A stretch of DNA of 59,976 nucleotides from contig NZ_JAJLRA010000028.1 of the NCBI RefSeq assembly GCF_020991365.1, positions 16,845 to 76,820 of the forward strand, in the 5' to 3' direction. Source of the DNA: Streptacidiphilus sp. ASG 303. Its GTDB lineage: Bacteria > Actinomycetota > Actinomycetes > Streptomycetales > Streptomycetaceae. The translations under genes and the position numbers were made by a program. How positions within the stretch are numbered: position 1 is the stretch's first letter; every line of letters starts with the position of its first letter. Of this stretch, positions 49,793 through 59,976 are shown piece after piece. Below the pieces are notes generated by a model. It had not been told where the DNA came from. It saw nothing but the letters and a program-made list of their open reading frames with translations, and ran no database searches.

Positions 49793-50125
49793 ATGACCTT
49801 CCAGTCTGCGGACCACTTCAGCGCGGCGCCCTCGAAGGGCGACATCAACACGATCATCGGCGGCATCGCGCCCGACTGGGGCCCGTTCGCCAGTCTCGGC
49901 GCGGAGGCGCGGGTCATGGTCGAGGTGGTCATGGCGGTGGCCATCCTGGGCTGCCTGGCGATCGCGATCTGGGGTGCGGCCAAGCAGCGCATCGGTGCCA
50001 CGGCGATGCGGGACACCTTCAGCGCCGAACAGGGGAAAGGCCTGATCATCGCCGGGCTCACCGGCGTGTTCATCATCGGTTCGCTCGGCACCCTGTTCAC
50101 CATTGTCTACGGGATGGCCATCTGA
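49793..50125 (+). CDS. Pilin-like (VirB2/TrbC-type) membrane protein
   Basis: This 110-residue protein has two hydrophobic helices (VMVEVVMAVAILGCLAIAIW and KGLIIAGLTGVFIIGSLGTL) with a short basic loop, the VirB2/TrbC size and form. No clear signal peptidase site precedes helix 1. It is first in a six-gene rightward unit. The GGTGAGAG region is a weak SD. Confidence 0.7.
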   Translation: MTFQSADHFSAAPSKGDINTIIGGIAPDWGPFASLGAEARVMVEVVMAVAILGCLAIAIWGAAKQRIGATAMRDTFSAEQGKGLIIAGLTGVFIIGSLGTLFTIVYGMAI

Positions 50126-50320
50126 CGATCTGATTAGTCATCCCGCAGCGGGCGCTGCGCCCTCCCACAGCGCACACGTCCCGCGGCCCTGCCCCCGGAC
50201 GCCGGTCATGCGCCCCTTGTGACCGCCGCTCCCGTCCACCACCATCCACCACTGTTGCCACCGCGTGCCCCGGGTCCGCCCGCCGGGGCTGCTCCTTCCT
50301 TCGTCCCAGGAGGGCCCGCC

Positions 50321-51142
50321 GTGTCGTTGTCGGACGACCAGCCGCACACCCGTACGCGGCTCCCGGTCGGCGACCTGCCCTCCGCGCCGCCGACCAGGCA
50401 GCCGCGCCCCCTGCGCACCCTGCTCACCGTCATGACCGTCCTCGTGCTGCTGGTGGTGGCCATCTCCTTCGCCAACCGCGACAAGCCCGTCCCGCGCAGC
50501 GGCACGGGCACCTCCTCCGGCGGCGGCTCCGGCGACTCCGGCGGCGGGGCCGCGCCCACCGCCGCCACCGGCCGGCGTCCCGTCGACACCACCACGGCCG
50601 ACGGCATCCCGACCGGCTTCCCCCACACCGACCAGGGCGCCCAGTCCGCGGCCGCCAACTACGCCGTCGCCCTCGGCTCCGCCGGGATGTTCGACCCCGG
50701 CACGCGGCACTCGGTGGTCGCCGCGATCGCCGACCCCGCCGCCGCAGCAGCCCTGCAGCGCCGCCTCGACGACGCCTTCGCCCAGGGCGCCGCCGCCCGG
50801 TACGGCCTCGACGAGCACGGCGCCGCACCCGCCGGCCTCACCTTCATCAGCCGCACCGTCCCCGTCGGCACCAGGACCGAGCAGTACGGCGGCGACGGCG
50901 CCCGCGTCGCGGTGTGGAGCAACGGCCTGATCGGCCTGGCCGGACAGGGCTCCACCCAGCCCGTCGCCGAGAACTGGTTCACCCTCACCCTCACCCTGCG
51001 GTGGGCGGGCGGCGACTGGAAGGTCGCCGACTTCCGCCAGCAGGCGGGCCCCGCCCCGGTCAACGGCGACCAGCGGGCGGCGAGCGCCGACGAGATCAGG
51101 TCCGCGGCCGAGCAGTACGGAGGCTTCCGCTATGCCCGCTAG
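50321..51142 (+). CDS. Single-span protein, VirB8/TcpC-like
   Basis: This 273-residue protein has a cytoplasmic tail, one helix (LRTLLTVMTVLVLLVVAISF), a Gly/Ser linker and an external domain (AAANYAVALGSAGMFDPGTR; WFTLTLTLRWAGGDWKVADF) with the look of the NTF2-like VirB8/TcpC fold. GTG 50321 has AGGAGGG six nt upstream, better than 50219. It would form the core of the channel. Assignment is by layout, not strong motif. Confidence 0.65.
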   Translation: MSLSDDQPHTRTRLPVGDLPSAPPTRQPRPLRTLLTVMTVLVLLVVAISFANRDKPVPRSGTGTSSGGGSGDSGGGAAPTAATGRRPVDTTTADGIPTGFPHTDQGAQSAAANYAVALGSAGMFDPGTRHSVVAAIADPAAAAALQRRLDDAFAQGAAARYGLDEHGAAPAGLTFISRTVPVGTRTEQYGGDGARVAVWSNGLIGLAGQGSTQPVAENWFTLTLTLRWAGGDWKVADFRQQAGPAPVNGDQRAASADEIRSAAEQYGGFRYAR

Positions 51143-52415
51143 CCCCCTCCTCCGCCGAGTCGGCGTCCTCGCCGGCGCCCTCGCCGCCCTGCAGTTCACG
51201 GCGCTGGCCGCGGCGCGGGCCGTCCTGGCGGCGCCGAGCCCGGGGCCGTCGCCCAGCCCGTCACCGACCTGCGTCACGCTGCCCGGCCCCGGCAGCGGCC
51301 GCTGCGACACCGGCGGCGGACTGCCCGGCGGCGGCACCCTCGACACGGTCACCGACCCCCTCGGCTCCCTCGCCAAGGGCTGCGCCGAGGCCGCCGCCTG
51401 GGTCATCCGCCGCCTGTCCGCCGCGATCGACGGCACCACCGAGGTCGACTTCACCAACGCCGCGTTCCTGCGCCAGTACGCCGTCGTCTTCGCCGCCTCC
51501 ACGATCCTCACCCTGGTGCTGTGGCTGCTGGCGGTGGCCAAGCGGGCCGTCCGGGGCGCGCCGCTGCAGCAGGCGTTCTCCGAGGCCGTCGGCTTCCTGT
51601 GGCTGACGGTCCTCGCCTCCGCGTTCACCCCGCTGATCCTGTACACGGTGGTCACCGCCACCGACGGGGTGACCAAGGCCATCGCGCTCGGCACCAAGTC
51701 CGACACCGGCACCTACCTGGGCGGCTTCGCCGACACCCTGCAGAAGGGGGACCTCGGCGGCGGCCCGCTGATCCTCATCATCGTCTCGCTGGTCGCCGTC
51801 CTCGCCGCCGCCGTGCTCTGGCTGGAGCTGCTCATCCGGGCCGCCATGCTCTACGTGGGCGCGCTGCTCGGCACGGCCGTCTACGCCGGGCTGGTCGACC
51901 GGCAGCTGTGGCAGCACGTGCGCCGCTGGGCGGGGCTGATGGTCGCGGTGGACCTCGCCAAGCCGGTGATCGTGATCGTGCTCGGCCTCGCCGGGGCGAT
52001 CGCCACCGACGCGGGGGCGTCCGACGCGTTCGCCCGGGTGCTGTCGGGCCTGGCGATCCTCTTCCTGTCGATCTTCGCGAGCACCGCCATCTACCGCTTC
52101 GTGCCCGGCTTCGGCGACGACATGATCGCCATGCGCCGGGCCCGCGCAGGCGCCGTCTCCGCCGGACAGGCGGTGGTCAACGGCCCGGCGAACTTCGTGA
52201 AGCAGGGCATCTCCACCCACGGCTCGCGCGGCGGCGGCGACGCCCCCGCCCGCGCCCAGGGCGGCCCGGCCGCCGCCTCCGGCGGCTCGGTCGGCTCCGG
52301 CATCGCCGCCCACTCCGGCCGCGGGGGCCGCCAGGCCCCGGCCGGGCCCCCGGCGCAGTCGCCGCCGCCCGCCTCCTCCGCCCACCGCAGCAGCCCGACC
52401 TCGAAGGGGGTGTGA
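51132..52415 (+). CDS. VirB6/TrbL-like polytopic membrane protein
   Basis: This 427-residue protein has a signal-like N-terminus, a Pro/Ser stretch, then about six helices (VVFAASTILTLVLWLLAVAK; GPLILIIVSLVAVLAAAVLW; VIVIVLGLAGAIATDAGA; LSGLAILFLSIFASTAIYRF) and a low-complexity Gly/Pro tail of about 90 residues. Form and position match VirB6/TrbL, the inner-membrane channel. It overlaps the previous gene by 11 bp. Confidence 0.75.
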   Translation: MPASPLLRRVGVLAGALAALQFTALAAARAVLAAPSPGPSPSPSPTCVTLPGPGSGRCDTGGGLPGGGTLDTVTDPLGSLAKGCAEAAAWVIRRLSAAIDGTTEVDFTNAAFLRQYAVVFAASTILTLVLWLLAVAKRAVRGAPLQQAFSEAVGFLWLTVLASAFTPLILYTVVTATDGVTKAIALGTKSDTGTYLGGFADTLQKGDLGGGPLILIIVSLVAVLAAAVLWLELLIRAAMLYVGALLGTAVYAGLVDRQLWQHVRRWAGLMVAVDLAKPVIVIVLGLAGAIATDAGASDAFARVLSGLAILFLSIFASTAIYRFVPGFGDDMIAMRRARAGAVSAGQAVVNGPANFVKQGISTHGSRGGGDAPARAQGGPAAASGGSVGSGIAAHSGRGGRQAPAGPPAQSPPPASSAHRSSPTSKGV

Positions 52416-52421
52416 CGGACG

Positions 52422-53996
52422 GTGTCCAGCCAGCCCGTCGGCCAGTACGGAGGGCAGTACGGCGGCAGCCCGTACGTCCACCAGCGCCGGACCTACCTCA
52501 TCGGCAAGGCCAGGCCCAACGCGGTCATCGGCCGCAACCGGGAGACCGGCGAGGTGCTGCTGATCATCGCCGGGGCCTTCCTCGGCATGATGTGGGGCCT
52601 GCTGGTCCCGCTCCTCCCCCTGCGCATCCTCGGCCTGGCCGGCTTCCCGGCCCTGGCCTTCGCAGCGGTGTACGTCCCGTACCGCAAGCGCACCTTCTAC
52701 AAGTGGGCGGAGATCAACCGCAGCTACCGGCGCACCGTCCGCTCCGGGCGCGCCGCCTGGGCCTCGACCGCGATGGAGGCCGGCACCCGGCTGGACGGCC
52801 GCGAGGTGGAGGTCGGCCCGCCGCCCGGCGTGGGGCGGCTGCGCTGGCTGTCCGCACCGTTCGGGCCCGACGAGGTCGCCGTCCTGCTCCACCTGGACCG
52901 GCACACCGTCACCGCCGCCATCGAGATCGAGGGGCCCGGTGTGGGCCTGCGCGACTCGGAGGACCAGGAGGCGCTGGTCGACCGGTTCGGCACCCTCCTC
53001 AAGCACGTCGCCAACGGCGACGGCTTCGTGACCCGCATCCAGATGCTGGCCCGCACCCTGCCCGCCGACCCCGACGCCCACGCCAAGGACGTCGAGCGCC
53101 GCGGCGACCCGGGGGCCCCGCCGTGGCTGCAGCACTCCTACGACCAGCTGCAGTCGATGGTCTCCACCTCCTCCGAGCAACACCGGGCCTACCTGGTCGC
53201 CTGCATGCACTACACCCGCGACCTCGCCGCCGAGGCCAACGCGATGGGCCGCACCGCGCACCGCCGCGCCCGCGGCGACGAGGGGATCGCCGCCGTCATG
53301 GCGCGCGAGCTCACCGACATCTGCGCCCGCCTCGCCGAGGCCGACATCCGGGTCCGGCAGCCGCTCGGCCAGGCCCGGCTCTCCTCGCTGCTGCACTCCA
53401 TGTACGACCCGGACCACCCCATCGACCACATCCAGGCCATGTCGCGGCGGAACGCCTGGCCGGCCGAGCTGGACGCCACCCATCCCCAGTACCTGACCGC
53501 CAAGACCCGGGAGTCCGCGACCCGCGAGCCGTGGTGCCACGCCACCGCCTGGGTCAAGGAGTGGCCGCTCACCCCGGTGGGCGTCAACTTCCTGGCACCG
53601 CTGCTGGTCCACACCCCGGACGTCATCCGCACCGTGGCCGTCACCATGGACCTGGAGCCGACCGACGTCGCCATCGAGCGGATGCTCACCGAGAAGACCA
53701 ACGACGACGCCGAGGCCAGCCGGGCGGCCAAGATGAACCGCACCGTCGACCCGCGCGACCTCGCCCACTCCGGCCGGGTCGACCAGCGCGGCGACGACCT
53801 CGCCTCCGGCGCCGCGGGCGTCAACCTGGTCGGGTACATCACCGTCTCCTCCCGCTCCCCCGAGGCGCTGGCCCGCGACAAGCGCACCATCCGCGCCTCG
53901 GCCGGCAAGAGCTACCTGAAGCTGGAGTGGTGCGACCGCGAGCACCACCGGGCCTTCGTGAACACCCTCCCCTTCGCCACCGGCATCCGCCGGTGA
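52422..53996 (+). CDS. SCO6880-type protein: VirB3/PrgI-like membrane part fused to VirB4 N-terminal domain
   Basis: This 524-residue protein has a Gln/Gly-rich start, two helices (residues about 45-85: LIIAGAFLGMMWGLLVPLLP, LAGFPALAFAAVYVPY) and a long soluble domain with VirB4-N-like blocks (MVSTSSEQHRAYLVACMHYT, RIQMLARTLP, EASRAAKMNRTVDPRD). There is no Walker motif; the ATPase half is the next gene. It joins the VirB3 and VirB4-N roles. The GTG start is 7 bp after the previous stop. Confidence 0.8.
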   Translation: MSSQPVGQYGGQYGGSPYVHQRRTYLIGKARPNAVIGRNRETGEVLLIIAGAFLGMMWGLLVPLLPLRILGLAGFPALAFAAVYVPYRKRTFYKWAEINRSYRRTVRSGRAAWASTAMEAGTRLDGREVEVGPPPGVGRLRWLSAPFGPDEVAVLLHLDRHTVTAAIEIEGPGVGLRDSEDQEALVDRFGTLLKHVANGDGFVTRIQMLARTLPADPDAHAKDVERRGDPGAPPWLQHSYDQLQSMVSTSSEQHRAYLVACMHYTRDLAAEANAMGRTAHRRARGDEGIAAVMARELTDICARLAEADIRVRQPLGQARLSSLLHSMYDPDHPIDHIQAMSRRNAWPAELDATHPQYLTAKTRESATREPWCHATAWVKEWPLTPVGVNFLAPLLVHTPDVIRTVAVTMDLEPTDVAIERMLTEKTNDDAEASRAAKMNRTVDPRDLAHSGRVDQRGDDLASGAAGVNLVGYITVSSRSPEALARDKRTIRASAGKSYLKLEWCDREHHRAFVNTLPFATGIRR

Positions 53997-54045
53997 GTCC
54001 GCCGCACGCCGCCGCCCCCGCCTGCCGCCGCACCGAGGAGTCGCC

Positions 54046-55401
54046 ATGCCGTCCCCGCTGAGCGCGCTGACCGAGGCCTTCACGAGCTTCGTGTTCGGCA
54101 AGGTGGAGACCACCCGGCTGCCGGTGCGGACCTCCACCGGCCAGGCGCAGGCCGTCTACCTGCCCACCGCCGCCCCCGGCCTGGGCGACTCCGGTGTGAT
54201 CATCGGCCGCGAGGTGTACAGCGGCAAGGGCTACGTCTACGACCCCTTCCAGCTGTACGGGCAGCAGCTGCCCGCCCCGCACTGGCTGGTCCTCGGCGAG
54301 TCCGGCAACGGCAAGTCGGCGCTGGAGAAGACCTACGTCCTGCGCCAGCTGCGCTTCCGCGACCGGCAGGTCGTGGTGCTCGACGCCCAGGGCGAGGACG
54401 GGGTCGGCGAGTGGAACCTCATCGCGGAGGCGCTGGGGATAACTCCCATCCGGCTCGACCCGGCGGCGGCCCTCGACGGGGGCATCCGCCTCAACCCGCT
54501 GGACCCGGCGATCGCCACCACCGGCCAGCTGGCGCTGCTGCGCACCATCGTCGAGGTGGCGATGGGCCGCGGCCTGGAGGAGCGGGCCGGCTTCGCCCTC
54601 AAGGCCGCGCACGGGCACGTCCACGCCGCGGTCACCGACCGCCAGCCGGTGCTCACCGACATCGTCGACACGCTGCGCAACCCCCACCCCGCCTCGGTGG
54701 AGTCGCTGGGCGTCTCCCTGGACGACGTCCGCTCCTGGGGCCTGGACGTCGCCCTGGTCCTGGACCGGCTGGTCGACGGCGACCTGCGCGGCATGTTCGA
54801 CGGCCCCACGACGGCGGGCATCGACCTCGACGCCCCGCTGATCGTCTTCGACCTGTCGCACATCGACCGCAACTCCATCGCCATGCCGATCCTGATGGCG
54901 ATCGTCGGCGTGTGGCTGGAGCACACCTGGATCCGCCCCGACCGGAAGAAGCGCATCTTCCTGGTCGAGGAGGCCTGGCACATCATCAACAGCCCCTTCG
55001 TGGCACAGCTCTTCCAGCGGCTGCTGAAGTTCGGCCGCCGCCTGGGCCTGTCCTTCGTCGCCGTCGTCCACCACCTCTCCGACGTGGTCGACGGCGCGGC
55101 GGCCAGGGAGGCGTCCGCGATCCTCAAGATGGCCTCCACCCGCACCGTCTACATGCAGAAGGCGGAGGAGGCCCGCGCCACCGGCCGGGTCCTCGGGCTC
55201 CCCCGCTGGGCCGTGGAGATCATCCCCACGCTGTCCCCCGGCATCGCCGTCTGGGACGTCAACGGCAACGTGCAGGTCGTCAAGCACATCATCACCGAGA
55301 CCGAGCGGCCGCTCGTCTACACCGACCGCGCCATGACCGAGGACGCGGTCGCCGAACGGACGCGCGCGGAGCAGCAGCTCGCGGACGACCCGGCCGCCTA
55401 G
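54046..55401 (+). CDS. VirB4-like ATPase
   Basis: This 451-residue ATPase has Walker A GESGNGKSA (near residues 83-91), Walker B IFLVEEAWHII and an RLGLSFVAVVHHLSDV arginine/glutamine region of the FtsK-HerA/VirB4 group. It powers secretion or pilus dynamics. It is about half the size of full VirB4; the missing N-half is the gene just upstream. Spacing is 49 bp, with GAGGAG before the ATG. Confidence 0.88.
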   Translation: MPSPLSALTEAFTSFVFGKVETTRLPVRTSTGQAQAVYLPTAAPGLGDSGVIIGREVYSGKGYVYDPFQLYGQQLPAPHWLVLGESGNGKSALEKTYVLRQLRFRDRQVVVLDAQGEDGVGEWNLIAEALGITPIRLDPAAALDGGIRLNPLDPAIATTGQLALLRTIVEVAMGRGLEERAGFALKAAHGHVHAAVTDRQPVLTDIVDTLRNPHPASVESLGVSLDDVRSWGLDVALVLDRLVDGDLRGMFDGPTTAGIDLDAPLIVFDLSHIDRNSIAMPILMAIVGVWLEHTWIRPDRKKRIFLVEEAWHIINSPFVAQLFQRLLKFGRRLGLSFVAVVHHLSDVVDGAAAREASAILKMASTRTVYMQKAEEARATGRVLGLPRWAVEIIPTLSPGIAVWDVNGNVQVVKHIITETERPLVYTDRAMTEDAVAERTRAEQQLADDPAA

Positions 55402-55417
55402 CCCCCACCGGAACGCC

Positions 55418-57361
55418 ATGACCCGTCCCCCCGCACCCTCCCCGTCCGCACCTGCCCCACCGCCCCGCTCGGGGATACCCGACGGGGCGGTGGTCGCCCT
55501 GCTGGCCTTCCTCCTCGGCTCGGTGACGCTCGTCTGGACGGCCACCGGGCTGGCCGCCCTGGCCACCCGGGGCGCCTGGCCGCAGGACCTGCCGTTCACC
55601 CGGTCCGCGCAGGCCCTCCGGCGCCTGGCGACCGCCCCGCACGACCTGGGTGCGGCCTGGGCCCCGGCCGCCCGCACCGACCGGGCGCCGGCGCCGCTGC
55701 CCTCGGCGGCGGCCTTCTGGTGGGCCTTCCTCCTGCTGCTGGCGGCCCTGGCCGGGCTGCTCCTGCTCGGGTACGCCGCCCGCGCACGCCTGAGCCGGAC
55801 GGCCGCCGGCGGCGCCGCACGGGGCGCGCGGGGGGCGGACGCAGCCCCGGCCGCCCCGGCAGCAGCCCCGACAGCGGCGAAACCCGCGCCGGATCTCCGT
55901 CCACAGCCTGTGGACGAGGATCCGGCGCCCGCAGCACCCGCCGTACCGGCCCCCGCCCCCGGAGGCCGCCCGGCCCCCGCCGGGCCCCCGGAGGCCGCAC
56001 CGCCCCCGCCGCTCCCCCGCACGCCGGCGCCGCCGCACCCGCTGTCCTTCGACGCCCTGCTGCCCCGGGCGGCCGCCATCCGGTCCCGGCCCGACACGGG
56101 ACTCGCCGGCCCCGGCGCCCGCACCGCGCCCAACCCCCTCGCCTACGGCGTCTCCCTGGGCCGCGACACCGCCACCGGCACCCCCCTCCTCGCAGCCCTC
56201 GACCGCGGCCACTGCGTCCTGGCCCCGCCCGCCGCGGCCCGCTCCAAGGGCCCGCTGCTGGTGCACCCCGCCATCGCGCACGCCCCCGGGCCCGTCCTGG
56301 CCACCTGCGCCGGTCCCGCCGCCTGGGAGGCCACGGCCGAACGGCGCGGCAAGACCGGGCCCGTGCTGGTCTTCGACCCGCTGCGCCTGACCGCCGCGGA
56401 CACCCCCCAGCGGCTGCGGTGGGCGCCCCACGACTCCTGCGGCGACCCGGCCGCGGCCACCGCCCGCGCCGACGCGCTGCTGCACGCCGTGACGCCGCCG
56501 CACGGCGGAGGCGCGGCCGCCGCCGTCCACGCCGCCGCCCGCACCCTGCTGCGGTGCTGGCTGCACGCGGCCGCCCTCGACGGACGGCCGTTCCGCCAGG
56601 TGCACCGCTGGGCGGGCGGCCACGGCGCGCGGGAGGCGCTGCGCGTCCTGCGCACGGACCGCGGCGCGGCCGAGGGGTGGGGCGGGGAGCTGGAGGCGGT
56701 GCTGGCGGCGCCGCACGCCTCCGGCGCCGGACTCCGGGACGCCGCATCGGGCCTGGTGGCCGGCGCGCTCTCGTCCCTGGAGGAGCTGCACGTCCTGCAG
56801 GCCTGCTCGCCGTCCCCAGGGGACCGGCTCGACGTGGAGTCGTTCCTGTCCGAACGGGGAACCCTGTACCTGGTGGGGCGGCCCGTCGAGGCGCCCCACC
56901 ACCAGCCCGGCGTCATGCCGCTCCTGACCGCCCTCGCGCAGGACGTGGTCGAGCGTGGCCGGCGCATGGCCGTAGGGTCATCCGCCGGCCGGCTCGACCC
57001 ACCACTGCTCGCCGTCCTCGACGACGTGGGCGCGGTCGCACCGCTGCCCTCCCTGCCGGACCTGGTCGCGCGCGGCGGCGCCCAGGGCGTCCCCGTGCTC
57101 GCCGTGCTCCGCTCCCCGGAGCAGGCCCGGGCCCGCTGGGACGGGCGCTCCGTCCACAGGCTGTGGACGGAGGCGGCGACCCGGACGGTCCTGGGCCCGG
57201 CGGACGGCGCGTCGGTGGGGGCGCTCCTGGCGGCGACGGCGGGGCCGGAGGCCGGGGGGCCGGTTCCGGCCGCGGCCCGGGGGGCCGCCGAGGGCGAGGC
57301 GGTCGTCCTGCACCCGCCCACGGGGGCGTCCGCGGTGGTCCGGTTCGACGACACGCCCTGA
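55418..57361 (+). CDS. VirD4/TraG-like coupling protein with degenerate P-loop
   Basis: This 647-residue protein has two N-terminal helices (VVALLAFLLGSVTLVWTATG; FWWAFLLLLAALAGLLLLGY), a Pro/Ala-rich linker and a VirD4-like motor domain: HCVLAPPAAARSKGPLL, GPVLATCAGPAAWEATAE, GPVLVFDPLRL, and a Walker B-like LLAVLDDVGAVAPLPSLPDL. The position of the canonical loop (APPxSGKG/T) reads APPAAARSKG, so the GxxxxGK[ST] motif is lost. It may bind but not hydrolyse nucleotide. Two 22-bp DNA palindromes lie inside the gene. Confidence 0.8.
   Translation: MTRPPAPSPSAPAPPPRSGIPDGAVVALLAFLLGSVTLVWTATGLAALATRGAWPQDLPFTRSAQALRRLATAPHDLGAAWAPAARTDRAPAPLPSAAAFWWAFLLLLAALAGLLLLGYAARARLSRTAAGGAARGARGADAAPAAPAAAPTAAKPAPDLRPQPVDEDPAPAAPAVPAPAPGGRPAPAGPPEAAPPPPLPRTPAPPHPLSFDALLPRAAAIRSRPDTGLAGPGARTAPNPLAYGVSLGRDTATGTPLLAALDRGHCVLAPPAAARSKGPLLVHPAIAHAPGPVLATCAGPAAWEATAERRGKTGPVLVFDPLRLTAADTPQRLRWAPHDSCGDPAAATARADALLHAVTPPHGGGAAAAVHAAARTLLRCWLHAAALDGRPFRQVHRWAGGHGAREALRVLRTDRGAAEGWGGELEAVLAAPHASGAGLRDAASGLVAGALSSLEELHVLQACSPSPGDRLDVESFLSERGTLYLVGRPVEAPHHQPGVMPLLTALAQDVVERGRRMAVGSSAGRLDPPLLAVLDDVGAVAPLPSLPDLVARGGAQGVPVLAVLRSPEQARARWDGRSVHRLWTEAATRTVLGPADGASVGALLAATAGPEAGGPVPAAARGAAEGEAVVLHPPTGASAVVRFDDTP
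55895..55916. promoter_or_regulatory. Palindrome A inside the VirD4-like gene
   Basis: CTCCGTCCACAG-C-CTGTGGACG; perfect over 9-1-9 (55898-55916). Each arm has CCGTCCACA, close to the Streptomyces DnaA box. It encodes LRPQPVD. Confidence 0.5.
57148..57172. promoter_or_regulatory. Palindrome B inside the VirD4-like gene
   Basis: CTCCGTCCACAG-G-CTGTGGACGGAG, perfect 12-1-12. It equals palindrome A over 22 bp except the centre base, yet it is read in another frame (SVHRLWTE). Confidence 0.5.
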
Positions 57362-57777
57362 CGGACCGATTCCCCGGCGGGCCGGTGCGCCGACGGGCCG
57401 GCGCGCCGACTCGGCATGCTCGCGCCATGTCCCCGACGGGGGGCGACGAAGCGGACTTCTCCCTGACAAAAGGTCTCACACGAGCCCCCAGCGGGCCGGA
57501 CACCCCACGCACGGCCACCGGTTGCACACAAACTTGTCGTCCTTTCTGAAAGAACTGCAACTGACGGGTAATCTCCTCTTCCACCCGGCAGCAAAGTCCA
57601 GCAACATGGTCAGCCCCAACCCCACGATTTCGAGGGGCGCCCCGGGCCGCGGCGGAGCGATCCGGTGTCCACGCACCACCGGAGACCGACCGGATCCTGC
57701 CGCGCATCTGAACCGTTTCGCGCGGCCGCGCGTCACCACCGGCAAACGGGAGCGCCGCAGGACGAGGAGTCGAGAGC
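57362..57777. other. 416-bp intergenic region before the sigma-lectin gene
   Basis: No convincing gene; a 40-codon frame at 57427-57549 lacks support. The region is less GC-rich around 57515-57600 and probably holds the promoter; CTTTCTGAAAG (about 57540) is a small palindrome and GGTAAT near 57570 a possible -10. Confidence 0.45.
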
Positions 57778-59655
57778 GTGTCTCAGCTCCACCGGTTCGA
57801 CCAGTCCGACCGTCCCCGCACCGCGGACGCGGCGGGGACCGCCGACACCCTCTGGGGCGAGGCCAGCCTGGACGCACCGCCGTGCACATCCATGCCCGAC
57901 GCCGAGCTCGCCCGGCTCCTCCGCAGCGACGAGCCCATCGCCCACGAGGCGCTCGACGAGCTGCGCCGCCGCCACCTGCCCGGGACGCTCTCCTACGCAC
58001 GCATCTGCACCCGCGACTCCCACGCGGCGGAGGAACTCGCCGACGACGCCTTCCAGGCCGCCCAGCGGGCCGTCCAGGCCTCCGGCGGCCCCAAGGAGGC
58101 GTGGCGGCACCACCTCCTGATGCTCGTCCAGCGGACGGCCGCGGGATGGGCGGCCACCACCCGTCGGGCCGAACTCGCGCCCGACTTCGCCGCCTGGCTC
58201 GACGAGGAGCGGGCGGCCCCGGCCGCGGGGCACCCGGACACGGGATCCCCGGAGTCCCGGTCGCTGATGCTGCTGAGCTTCCGCTCCCTCCCCGAGCGCA
58301 CCCAGGCGCTCCTGTGGCACGCCGTCGTGGAGGAGGACGACGACGCCACCACCGGGCACCTCCTGGGCATCGAGCCGCAGAGCGTCCCCTACCTCCGCGA
58401 GAAGGCCCGCGAGGCCTACCGCGACGTCTACCTCCAGGTCCACACCGAGAACTCCGCAGGCGAGGACTGCCGGCGCTTCAGCGGCCTGGTCGAGGCCGCC
58501 GCCCGGCGTTCCGGCGTCCACCAGAACGAGGACCTGGACCGGCACCTCGCGGGCTGTCCGCGCTGCTCCCGCCTGCTCACCGACCTCGTGGGGATGGACG
58601 AGCGCCCGGACGCCGTGCTGGCCGAGGGGCTCCTGCTGTGGGGAGGCGCCGCCTATGTCGCCGCCCGCCTCGCCAGGACCGTCACCGGCCGGACCATCCC
58701 CGTCGGCGTCCCGCGCCTGCCGGGCACCGGCCCCGCCCACGCACCGGCGGTGCACGGCGGCGCGTCCGGGGCCACGGACGGCGGGGGCGGGCCGTTCGGC
58801 GGTACCCGCGCGGGGGCCGCGGACACCGCCTCCGCCGGATGGCGGCTGGTGCGGCTGGCCCGCCAGTTCCCGGCCGCGGGAGCGGCGGCCGCGGTCGTGT
58901 TCGTCGTGGCCACCGCCGCGACCACGATCGTGACGCTGGTCCCGTCGACCAGCACCAGCGCGGCCGGAGGCGGCAACGACCCCCTCGGCGGTCCCCCGCT
59001 GGTCGTGACCGGCACGACCGCCTTCGCCACCGTGACGACGACCCTCCCGGCCTCCCGTCCCCCTTCGGCTCCGGCGTCGGCTCCGGGGAGTGCGTCGGCC
59101 TCCCCGAAGGCGTCCGGCCCCTCGGCCTCCCCCGGTGCCCCGGGCCCCTCCAGCGGCACCGGCCGGGCCCCCGGCGCCTCCGGCCGTCCGGCCCCGGGCA
59201 GGTCGGTCCCCGTCCCCCCGCCACCGACCAACGGCATCACCTACAGCGAGCTGGTCAACGTCCGCTCCGGCCTCTGCCTCGACGTCGCCAGCCAGTTCGT
59301 CGCGCAGAACGCCGACGTCGTGGTGAGCACCTGCACCGGCGCGACCACGCAGAAGTGGTACACCGGCTCGGACAACCTCATCCGCAACTACGCCAACCCC
59401 GACTTCTGCCTCGACTCCCGGGGGAGCACCGGCAACGGCGTCGGGATCTGGGAGTGCTCCGCCGTGTCCGGTTCCAACGGCAACAACCTCCGCTGGCAGA
59501 ACGGGGCGGACGGGTCCATCCGCCCGTTCGTCGACAGCCGCTTCGCCCTCACCCCGACCAGCGGCACCCCGGGCACCGCCGTGGGCCTCGCATGGGCGGA
59601 GGGCCGCACCGAGCAGACCTGGCGCACGGGCGCCACGGCCGTGCTGCAGGGCTGA
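57778..59655 (+). CDS. Sigma-factor-like / zinc-finger / membrane / ricin-lectin fusion protein
   Basis: This 625-residue protein combines: sigma region 2-like helix set (residues about 45-105, HEALDELRRRHLPGTLSYAR, AAEELADDAFQAA), region 4-like (about 168-222, LPERTQALLWHAVVEED, LLGIEPQSVPYLREKAREAY), an anti-sigma-type zinc finger (H256-x3-C260-x2-C263), one membrane span (366-388), a Ser/Pro/Ala linker and a ricin-type beta-trefoil (about 484-620, NVRSGLCLDVA, NPDFCLDSRG, TQKW/LRWQ). It may sense a carbohydrate outside and gene-regulate inside. GTG 57778 has GAGGAG 8 nt upstream. Confidence 0.85.
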   Translation: MSQLHRFDQSDRPRTADAAGTADTLWGEASLDAPPCTSMPDAELARLLRSDEPIAHEALDELRRRHLPGTLSYARICTRDSHAAEELADDAFQAAQRAVQASGGPKEAWRHHLLMLVQRTAAGWAATTRRAELAPDFAAWLDEERAAPAAGHPDTGSPESRSLMLLSFRSLPERTQALLWHAVVEEDDDATTGHLLGIEPQSVPYLREKAREAYRDVYLQVHTENSAGEDCRRFSGLVEAAARRSGVHQNEDLDRHLAGCPRCSRLLTDLVGMDERPDAVLAEGLLLWGGAAYVAARLARTVTGRTIPVGVPRLPGTGPAHAPAVHGGASGATDGGGGPFGGTRAGAADTASAGWRLVRLARQFPAAGAAAAVVFVVATAATTIVTLVPSTSTSAAGGGNDPLGGPPLVVTGTTAFATVTTTLPASRPPSAPASAPGSASASPKASGPSASPGAPGPSSGTGRAPGASGRPAPGRSVPVPPPPTNGITYSELVNVRSGLCLDVASQFVAQNADVVVSTCTGATTQKWYTGSDNLIRNYANPDFCLDSRGSTGNGVGIWECSAVSGSNGNNLRWQNGADGSIRPFVDSRFALTPTSGTPGTAVGLAWAEGRTEQTWRTGATAVLQG

Positions 59656-59865
59656 CCGTCCGGGCCGGCAGCCCCGCGGTCCGGACGGGCGAGCCGGCCG
59701 CCCCGTCGATCCGTCCCGTCCGGCGGTCGTGGTCGCCCCCACCCGGTCGTGCTCCGTTTCCGGGCATGCGAAAGGGGCCCCGCCTCCGTTCCCGGCCACG
59801 AGGCCCCCTCCCGGACCCACCCGATCCCCCGGCACACCACACACACGCACACGCGCACAGACGCG
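59656..59865. other. Gap between sigma-lectin gene and 5S terminator
   Basis: It contains an imperfect GGGGCC/GGCCCC hairpin near 59774-59808, a possible terminator of the plus-strand gene, and a CA-rich simple tract (59834-59860). No gene. Confidence 0.4.
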
Positions 59866-59906
59866 AAAAAGACCGTGGCCCCGGCAGAATCCTGCCGGGG
59901 CCACGG
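59866..59906 (-). terminator. Intrinsic terminator of the rRNA operon
   Basis: CCGTGGCCCCGGCAG (59873-59887) pairs perfectly with 59892-59906 around AATC, followed on the minus strand by TCTTTTT (59866-59872). It lies 13 bp after the 5S 3' end. Confidence 0.92.
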
Positions 59907-59918
59907 CCCTCAATGATT

Positions 59919-59976
59919 GTTCGGCGGCGTCCTACTCTCCCACAGGGTCCCCCCTGCAGTACCATCGGCGCTGTAA
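59919..59976 (-). rRNA. rrf: 5S ribosomal RNA (3' part, cut by the window edge)
   Basis: The minus strand reads TTACAGCGCCGATGGTACTG and then GGGAGAGTAGGACGCCGCCG, the 3' half of actinobacterial 5S rRNA. About 58 of about 117-120 bases are present; the 5' half, 23S and 16S lie beyond the right edge. Confidence 0.95.

What the first reader, a model, noticed from the sequence alone, without database searches (positions are those of the whole stretch)
57778..59655. One-protein signal system: sigma-like regions, zinc finger, membrane span and ricin lectin
Sigma region 2- and 4-like parts are joined to an anti-sigma-type HxxxCxxC finger, a transmembrane helix and an outside beta-trefoil lectin. 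This could be a membrane-held sigma factor released when sugar binds or by proteolysis.
Basis: partly seen in the sequence, partly recalled or inferred. Interest (0 to 1): 0.66.

Follow-up and report, generated by a model that had tools for sequence, protein, structure and literature searches.

The report
Membrane lectin with decayed sigma domain
A soil actinobacterium carries a membrane protein that joins a sugar-binding domain outside the cell to a sigma-factor-shaped domain inside; the layout is that of a known family of membrane-held gene switches, but the inner part has changed at several residues that its intact relatives keep for binding RNA polymerase and DNA.

Summary
The ORF at 57778-59655 encodes sigma2- and sigma4-like domains, a C...HxxxCxxC anti-sigma zinc motif, one transmembrane helix, a Pro/Ser/Ala/Gly linker and a ricin-B lectin. 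Start, gene order and domains are kept in two related genomes, under purifying selection.

The twist: the protein belongs to a clade (36 sequences examined) that keeps the sigma fold and zinc motif, while four positions nearly invariant in 41 sigma-intact relatives (sigma-E D48, E52, W/Y73, R176) are mostly changed; Pfam recognises no sigma domain in 27 of 27 lectin members. In 12 of 14 members of one subclade, all from one unnamed genus, the gene follows a SigB-family sigma gene (sigI-like locus).

I favour a sugar-sensing receptor whose sigma domain works by protein contact (mimic or modulator). A working sigma factor with altered contacts is not excluded: three of the window protein's four changes are conservative. 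New variant of a known kind.

The parts
57764..57769 (+). probable ribosome-binding site GAGGAG, 8 nt before the GTG start; kept in both genus orthologs
   Evidence: sequence; upstream alignment
57778..59655 (+). ORF, 625 aa: sigma-like / ZAS / TM / ricin-B lectin protein
   Evidence: orthologs; synteny
57892..58170 (+). sigma2-like domain, aa 39-131 (sigma-E positions D48, E52, W73 are E86, D90, H112 here)
   Evidence: fold; residue mapping; weak Pfam
58258..58443 (+). sigma4-like domain, aa 161-222 (sigma-E R171, S172, R176 are P204, Y205, K209 here)
58450..58602 (+). zinc anti-sigma (ZAS) type domain, aa 225-275, ligands C231, H256, C260, C263
   Evidence: fold of this part alone inconclusive
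58879..58950 (+). single transmembrane helix, about aa 368-391, positive-inside, N terminus in the cytoplasm
58951..59235 (+). Pro/Ser/Ala/Gly/Thr-rich extracytoplasmic linker, aa 392-486
   Evidence: composition; poorly conserved
59245..59622 (+). ricin-B beta-trefoil lectin, aa 490-615; Cys pairs 500/519 and 544/560, QKW at 525-527

Best explanation
It is a single-pass membrane receptor of the ECF52 layout (inside: sigma2-sigma4 and a fused zinc anti-sigma domain; outside: linker and carbohydrate-binding module) whose sigma module has drifted away from RNA polymerase and promoter contacts. Shown here: the layout, the sigma2 fold, a kept zinc motif, purifying selection, and clade-wide change of four positions that sigma-intact relatives keep. 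Inferred: the lectin binds a glycan at the cell surface; binding or shedding changes the cytoplasmic sigma-like/ZAS unit by conformation or proteolysis; that unit then acts by protein contact, as a sigma mimic or anti-sigma-like modulator of another sigma factor, and not by starting transcription itself. For one subclade the SigB-family factor encoded next door is the obvious candidate partner; for the window protein the partner is unknown.
For: Pfam at E <= 1e-3: 0 of 27 ricin-class members match any sigma-70 region, against 11 of 11 (region 2) and 8 of 11 (region 4) NPCBM/ECF52-type relatives. An HMM of 18 ECF factors of this genome gives 2-30 bits for the ricin class and 59-81 for the NPCBM class. 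In a tree of 81 family rows plus 4 ECFs, 36 low-scoring rows and one 38-bit row form one group (SH-aLRT 94) inside a lineage (support 87) that also holds sigma-intact lectin fusions; 3 further low-scoring rows lie elsewhere. Sigma-E D48: 40 of 41 intact, 1 of 36 decayed; E52: 41 of 41 and 15 of 36; Tyr at 73: 41 of 41 and 1 of 36; R176: 41 of 41 and 9 of 36. The Hx3Cx2C motif is in 82 of 83 members extracted, and the upstream zinc Cys in 36 of 36 decayed rows. Positions 48 and 73 vary even among the window protein and its two orthologs (E, E, Q and H, H, Q). Recognition-helix mean charge: canonical ECF +4.4, ECF52-type +1.9, other intact +1.2, decayed -0.2, window 0. Sigma2 dN between the same two genomes is 2.3 times that of the ECF52-type paralog (bootstrap 1.15-4.86). 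12 of 14 members of one subclade follow a SigB-family gene, same strand; 0 of 61 other loci. Precedent: PhyR has a sigma2/sigma4-like domain that acts as a mimic (passages of PMC4598750), and PhyR chains are among the fold matches.
Against: Three of the window's four key changes are conservative (E for D, D for E, K for R), and with its orthologs (24-30 bits) it is among the higher-scoring, so less decayed, lectin members. Sigma4 is strongly constrained (dN/dS 0.20-0.25) and its helix-turn-helix is almost invariant in three orthologs, as a DNA-binding domain would be. A test of charged/polar against other conserved positions is not significant (Fisher p 0.20), and the four positions were picked by me. 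The sigma4 dN ratio to ECF52 of 1.65 (0.65-5.9) is not significant. Rows in the residue counts were selected for Hx3Cx2C, so only the upstream Cys is free evidence there. The group support of 94 is under the 95 mark, and the tree tool warned of long branches. The SigB-family neighbour is one conserved locus in one genus, not independent events, and the window gene is not there. No partner or ligand is shown.
Confidence: 0.45

Rival explanations
1. It is a working membrane-held sigma factor like SCO4117 (ECF52): the fused ZAS domain holds sigma2 and sigma4 off; sugar binding or shedding leads to proteolysis or a shape change that frees an active sigma factor with an unusual promoter.
For: Same layout; sigma2 fold Z 10.7; conservative changes at three of four key positions and strong constraint on sigma4; even ECF52-type proteins depart from canonical ECFs at -35 contact positions 171 and 172, yet a knockout of SCO4117 has clear phenotypes (passages of PMC5826349).
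Against: No sigma region passes a Pfam or NCBIfam cut-off; positions nearly invariant in 41 sigma-intact relatives are changed, two of them variable even among the three orthologs; recognition helix without net positive charge.
Confidence: 0.35
2. It is mainly a surface lectin or adhesin; the cytoplasmic sigma/ZAS part is a vestige kept as an anchor.
For: Pfam and NCBIfam see the lectin clearly and the sigma part barely; in two of 19 plasmid records with a match the relative is named after its outer (LamG) domain.
Against: The cytoplasmic sigma4 and ZAS parts are more constrained than the lectin in the two comparisons with the window protein (dN/dS 0.18-0.25 against 0.46-0.55); in the third pair the difference is small (0.20 and 0.26 against 0.28). 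The Hx3Cx2C motif is in 82 of 83 members.
Confidence: 0.12
3. It is a pseudogene or an artefact of a high-GC frame.
For: High-GC DNA gives long spurious frames all over this region.
Against: Orthologs over the full length with kept gene order and dN/dS 0.36-0.40.
Confidence: 0.01

Closest known systems
ECF52 sigma factors (SCO4117 of Streptomyces coelicolor)
   Same: Order of parts: sigma2-sigma4, zinc finger, TM, Pro-rich linker, carbohydrate-binding domain; homologous N-terminal part (35% to the ECF52-type paralog of the same genome).
   Different: Outer module is a ricin-B lectin, not NPCBM; sigma regions not recognised by Pfam; separate group in the tree. The ECF52-type gene of this genome is another gene, on contig C135 (L007; so named here by its NPCBM domain and TetR-type neighbour).
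PhyR, sigma mimic of Alphaproteobacteria
   Same: Sigma2/sigma4-like domain that, in PhyR, no longer works as a sigma factor (passages of PMC4598750); PhyR chains appear among the fold matches.
   Different: PhyR has a receiver domain and binds NepR; here the sigma-like domain is fused to a ZAS domain, a membrane helix and a lectin. Mimicry is not shown here.
RsgI-type anti-sigma factors with outer carbohydrate-binding modules (Clostridium thermocellum; recalled, only the start of a sigma-I abstract seen)
   Same: Sugar sensing outside linked to sigma control inside.
   Different: RsgI has no sigma domain of its own (recalled).
IutY (ECF243) of Pseudomonas putida
   Same: Sigma fused to a membrane anti-sigma part, released by proteolysis (passages of PMC8999054).
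   Different: Iron-starvation cell-surface signalling; a working sigma factor; no lectin named in those passages.

Membership tests
ECF52 group | sigma, zinc finger, TM, Pro-rich linker and carbohydrate-binding module in that order | tested here: met
   definition from passages of PMC5826349
ECF52 group | recognisable ECF sigma domain | tested here: not met
   Sigma70_r2 16.9 bits, cut-off 24; TIGR02937 11.2 bits, cut-off 42.9; ECF52-type L007 scores 41.4 and 57.3
ECF52 group | NPCBM (smart00776) outer module, as in SCO4117 | tested here: not met
   Ricin_B_lectin instead
ECF52 group | placed with ECF52-type proteins in a tree | tested here: not met
   all 11 NPCBM rows lie in a separate 16-row group, support 99
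Working sigma-70 family factor | sigma2 and sigma4 fold | tested here: met
   sigma2 Z 10.7; sigma4 only together with sigma2 at rmsd 4.6; model pLDDT 59
Working sigma-70 family factor | residues at sigma-E 48, 52, 73 and 176 kept by sigma-intact relatives | tested here: not met
   E86, D90, H112, K209 in place of D, E, Y/W, R; three of the four changes are conservative
Working sigma-70 family factor | binds core RNA polymerase and starts transcription | not testable with these tools
   needs a biochemical assay
Zinc-binding anti-sigma domain (class I ASD) | Hx3Cx2C spanning helices 2 and 3 | tested here: met
   H256, C260, C263 across predicted helices 251-259 and 261-275; definition from passages of PMC7406223
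Zinc-binding anti-sigma domain (class I ASD) | ASD fold | tested here: inconclusive
   separate model pLDDT 58.7, best Z 3.3, no anti-sigma listed
Ricin-B lectin | ricin-B sequence family, QxW and Cys pairs | tested here: met
   PF00652 63.1 bits, cut-off 29; solved lectins from E 9.3e-8 and xylanase lectin modules from 1.4e-6; Cys pairs
PhyR-type sigma mimic | sigma-like domain that binds an anti-sigma in place of a sigma | not testable with these tools
   needs interaction assays

The most novel reading that the evidence does not exclude
A clade of sugar receptors in the Streptomyces family in which an ECF sigma factor fused to its own anti-sigma domain has turned into a membrane-held sigma mimic: the fold and the zinc anti-sigma site are kept, RNA polymerase and promoter contacts are lost, and extracellular glycan binding controls another sigma factor, in one genus probably the SigB-family factor encoded next door.
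Probability: 0.28. Interest if true: 0.78.

Novelty: new variant of a known kind. Interest (0 to 1): 0.5.

Why it matters
In the passages seen, the one studied sigma factor with a fused membrane part and a carbohydrate-binding module is SCO4117; its promoter motif is theoretical and its authors could not overproduce the protein. A related clade that keeps the fold and zinc site but changes the contacts would show an evolutionary route from sigma factor to receptor, and would make it testable whether these proteins work as sigma factors at all. It also gives a candidate link between surface sugars and a SigB-type stress network; a paper on that network says that the stimuli acting on ArsI and the control of sigI transcription are unknown (passage of PMC9205884).

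Tried and rejected
Protein as a rare oddity: rejected. A search with the N-terminal 300 aa rings in 197 of 200 genomes of the family and in 74 of 197 genomes of a class sample, 16 of those 74 being of the own family. Many of these are ECF52-type genes.

Ricin lectin as the cause of sigma decay: rejected. Of 34 other members scanned 16 match Ricin_B_lectin and 27 match Sigma70_r2, so at least 9 have both (34 of 45 such members were given to the scan).

Polar contact residues lost more than core residues: tested, Fisher p 0.20, not significant.

ASD fold of the ZAS part: model poor, no anti-sigma in the list, inconclusive.

Foldseek on the sigma part: sigma factors lead the list but no match with E <= 0.001.

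Rfam on window 50000-59976: no match; a 5S gene follows the orthologous gene in G001, and the window ends at about that place.

Literature: the listings (titles and starts of abstracts) of searches for a ricin or beta-trefoil lectin with a sigma factor showed no paper on such a fusion; this covers open-licence PMC papers only. The full ECF classifications (Casas-Pastor 2021; Pinto and Mascher 2016) were not seen, so the lectin clade may already have a group number there.

Rows dropped: of 83 members extracted two (one without the finger motif, one too short) were left out of alignment and tree (81 family rows). The rows were cut out by their Hx3Cx2C motif, so its presence in the alignment is by construction. 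3 low-scoring rows outside the main group (L021 and two of L068) and the 38-bit row L052 were left out of the residue counts. Loci were picked by me from the best hits of a query with the window's own N-terminus, so decayed members are over-represented: no census. Loci hold differing lengths of upstream DNA, so a missing SigB-family neighbour may sometimes be a missing flank.

Full report
WHAT IS THERE. The ORF at 57778-59655 (+) is real: GTG start with a GAGGAG ribosome-binding site, 625 aa. From the N terminus: sigma2-like aa 39-131, sigma4-like aa 161-222, a C231...H256xxxC260xxC263 zinc motif, a juxtamembrane stretch, one transmembrane helix near aa 368-391, a 95-residue Pro/Ser/Ala/Gly/Thr linker and a ricin-B lectin aa 490-615. 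Arg/Lys lie on the N side of the helix only (3 against 0), and the lectin has two Cys pairs, which fits an extracytoplasmic lectin.

SIGMA FOLD OR NOT. By sequence the sigma part is marginal: Sigma70_r2 16.9 bits against a cut-off of 24, TIGR02937 11.2 against 42.9. By predicted structure it is a sigma2 domain: E. coli sigma-E sigma2 Z 10.7, rmsd 1.9 over 87 of 91 residues; SigW sigma2+sigma4 Z 9.9 over 135 residues at 4.6 A. The model had three sequences and pLDDT 59, and Foldseek's E-values alone were not significant.

WHERE IT SITS. The genus is Peterkaempfera by inference: contig G002:C161 (8528 bp), which holds one ortholog, has the length of the P. griseoplana contig that holds L020 (family Streptomycetaceae). 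Orthologs are present in both other genomes of the genus that are held (65% and 67%). The gene follows type IV secretion-like genes (AAA_10/TraG at 54046-55401, TraG-D_C at 55418-57361); these are kept next to it in G001 and in L020, and in G001 the gene faces the 5S end of an rRNA operon. In G001 the ECF52-type gene (L004, grouped with L007) lies about 6 kb beyond the same operon (coordinates).

A LARGE FAMILY. The N-terminal 300 aa ring in 197 of 200 genomes of the family and in 74 of 197 genomes of a class-wide sample. I extracted 83 distinct members. They share the cytoplasmic part and vary outside: ricin-B, NPCBM (ECF52-type), CBM2 with ricin-B, F5/8C, Laminin_G_3, CBM6. The own genome has three: the window protein, an ECF52-type protein next to a TetR-type gene (L007; TetR by eye) and a ricin+CBM2 protein (L005).

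TWO KINDS OF SIGMA DOMAIN. Members fall into sigma-intact and sigma-decayed. At E <= 1e-3 Pfam finds sigma region 2 in 11 of 11 NPCBM members, 27 of 34 others scanned and 0 of 27 ricin-class members. An HMM from 18 ECF factors of this genome gives 59-81 bits for NPCBM members and 2-30 for the ricin class. On the tree 36 low-scoring rows, with one 38-bit row, form one group (SH-aLRT 94, short of the 95 mark; quick method; long branches flagged) nested with sigma-intact lectin fusions (support 87); three low-scoring rows form a second group. On this tree decay followed the lectin fusion and was not caused by it.

WHICH RESIDUES. Mapped on E. coli sigma-E (counts): D48 in 17 of 18 canonical ECFs, 40 of 41 sigma-intact members, 1 of 36 decayed; E52 in 11 of 18, 41 of 41, 15 of 36; Trp/Tyr at 73 in 18 of 18 ECFs and Tyr in 41 of 41, with Tyr in 1 of 36 decayed; R176 in 12 of 18, 41 of 41, 9 of 36. 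R176 and S172 of sigma-E contact the -35 bases (passages of PMC6713349). Region 2.2 forms the main contact with the RNA polymerase beta-prime coiled coil (passages of PMC4598750); that D48 and E52 lie in it is recalled. In contrast the Hx3Cx2C motif is in 82 of 83 members extracted and the upstream zinc Cys in 36 of 36 decayed rows (the other three ligands were a condition for entering the alignment). The window protein has E86, D90, H112, K209: three conservative changes, so it is less decayed than others. Yet positions 48 and 73 vary among it and its orthologs (E, E, Q; H, H, Q). A broader test (charged/polar against other conserved positions) is not significant (p 0.20), and the four positions were picked by me from known contacts.

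SELECTION. Window against G001: dN/dS sigma2 0.27, sigma4 0.25, ZAS 0.18, lectin 0.55. Between the same two genomes the ECF52-type gene gives sigma2 0.17, sigma4 0.09, ZAS 0.34. Sigma2 dN is 2.3 times higher in the lectin protein (bootstrap 1.15-4.86); for sigma4 (0.65-5.9) and ZAS (0.23-1.72) the interval includes 1. The cytoplasmic part is thus under real constraint, but sigma2 is looser than in ECF52.

A NEIGHBOUR IN ONE GENUS. In 12 of the 14 rows of one decayed subclade the gene lies directly downstream, same strand, of a SigB/F/G-family gene; none of the other 61 loci shows this. Three of the 12 neighbours were scanned and pass the TIGR02980 (SigBFG) cut-off; two genes on the other side are hutF and hutI. 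In one locus examined, divergent upstream genes encode a STAS protein and an HATPase protein (L128), the layout described for sigI, arsI and prsI of S. coelicolor (passage of PMC8346170); that paper calls sigI monocistronic. All 14 rows come from one unnamed genus (code g10), perhaps Streptomyces. This is one syntenic locus inherited within that genus, so it is a lead, not proof, and the window gene is elsewhere.

HOW IT PROBABLY WORKS. The layout says: outside lectin, inside regulatory unit. ECF52 models already propose sugar- or protease-driven release. In class I anti-sigma domains helix 1 binds sigma4 (passage of PMC7406223) and helix 4 binds region 2.2 of sigma2 (passage of PMC4598750), so the fused ZAS could hold its own sigma-like domain. 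With polymerase and promoter contacts eroded but fold, zinc motif and selection kept, I think action by protein contact is more likely (0.45) than a working sigma factor (0.35). PhyR is the precedent for a sigma fold used as a mimic. None of ligand, partner or proteolysis is shown here.

NOVELTY. The layout and the release idea are known (ECF52). New, as far as the listings show, are the lectin-bearing decayed clade, the residue pattern and the link to a sigI-like locus. New variant of a known kind.

Noticed in passing
L037, L038, L068 and G127:C37 (L053, L054): Several family members sit side by side, often one sigma-intact and one sigma-decayed copy; G127:C37 holds four in about 22 kb.
   Followed up: partly
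L032, L033, L035, L036, L042: Five genomes carry members with the five highest sigma scores (87-95 bits) whose frame stops right after the ZAS domain, before any membrane helix: possible soluble sigma+ZAS forms or conserved truncations.
   Followed up: no
window, about 57567-57648: Strongly conserved non-coding block upstream of the gene in three genus genomes, a likely promoter or regulatory site.
   Followed up: no
L005 (G000:C123): Own-genome paralog carries both a ricin-B lectin and a cellulose-binding CBM2 outside.
   Followed up: partly
window 54046-57361: Type IV secretion/conjugation-like genes (AAA_10/TraG, TraG-D_C) kept next to the gene in the genus, and beside an rRNA operon in G001.
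   Followed up: partly
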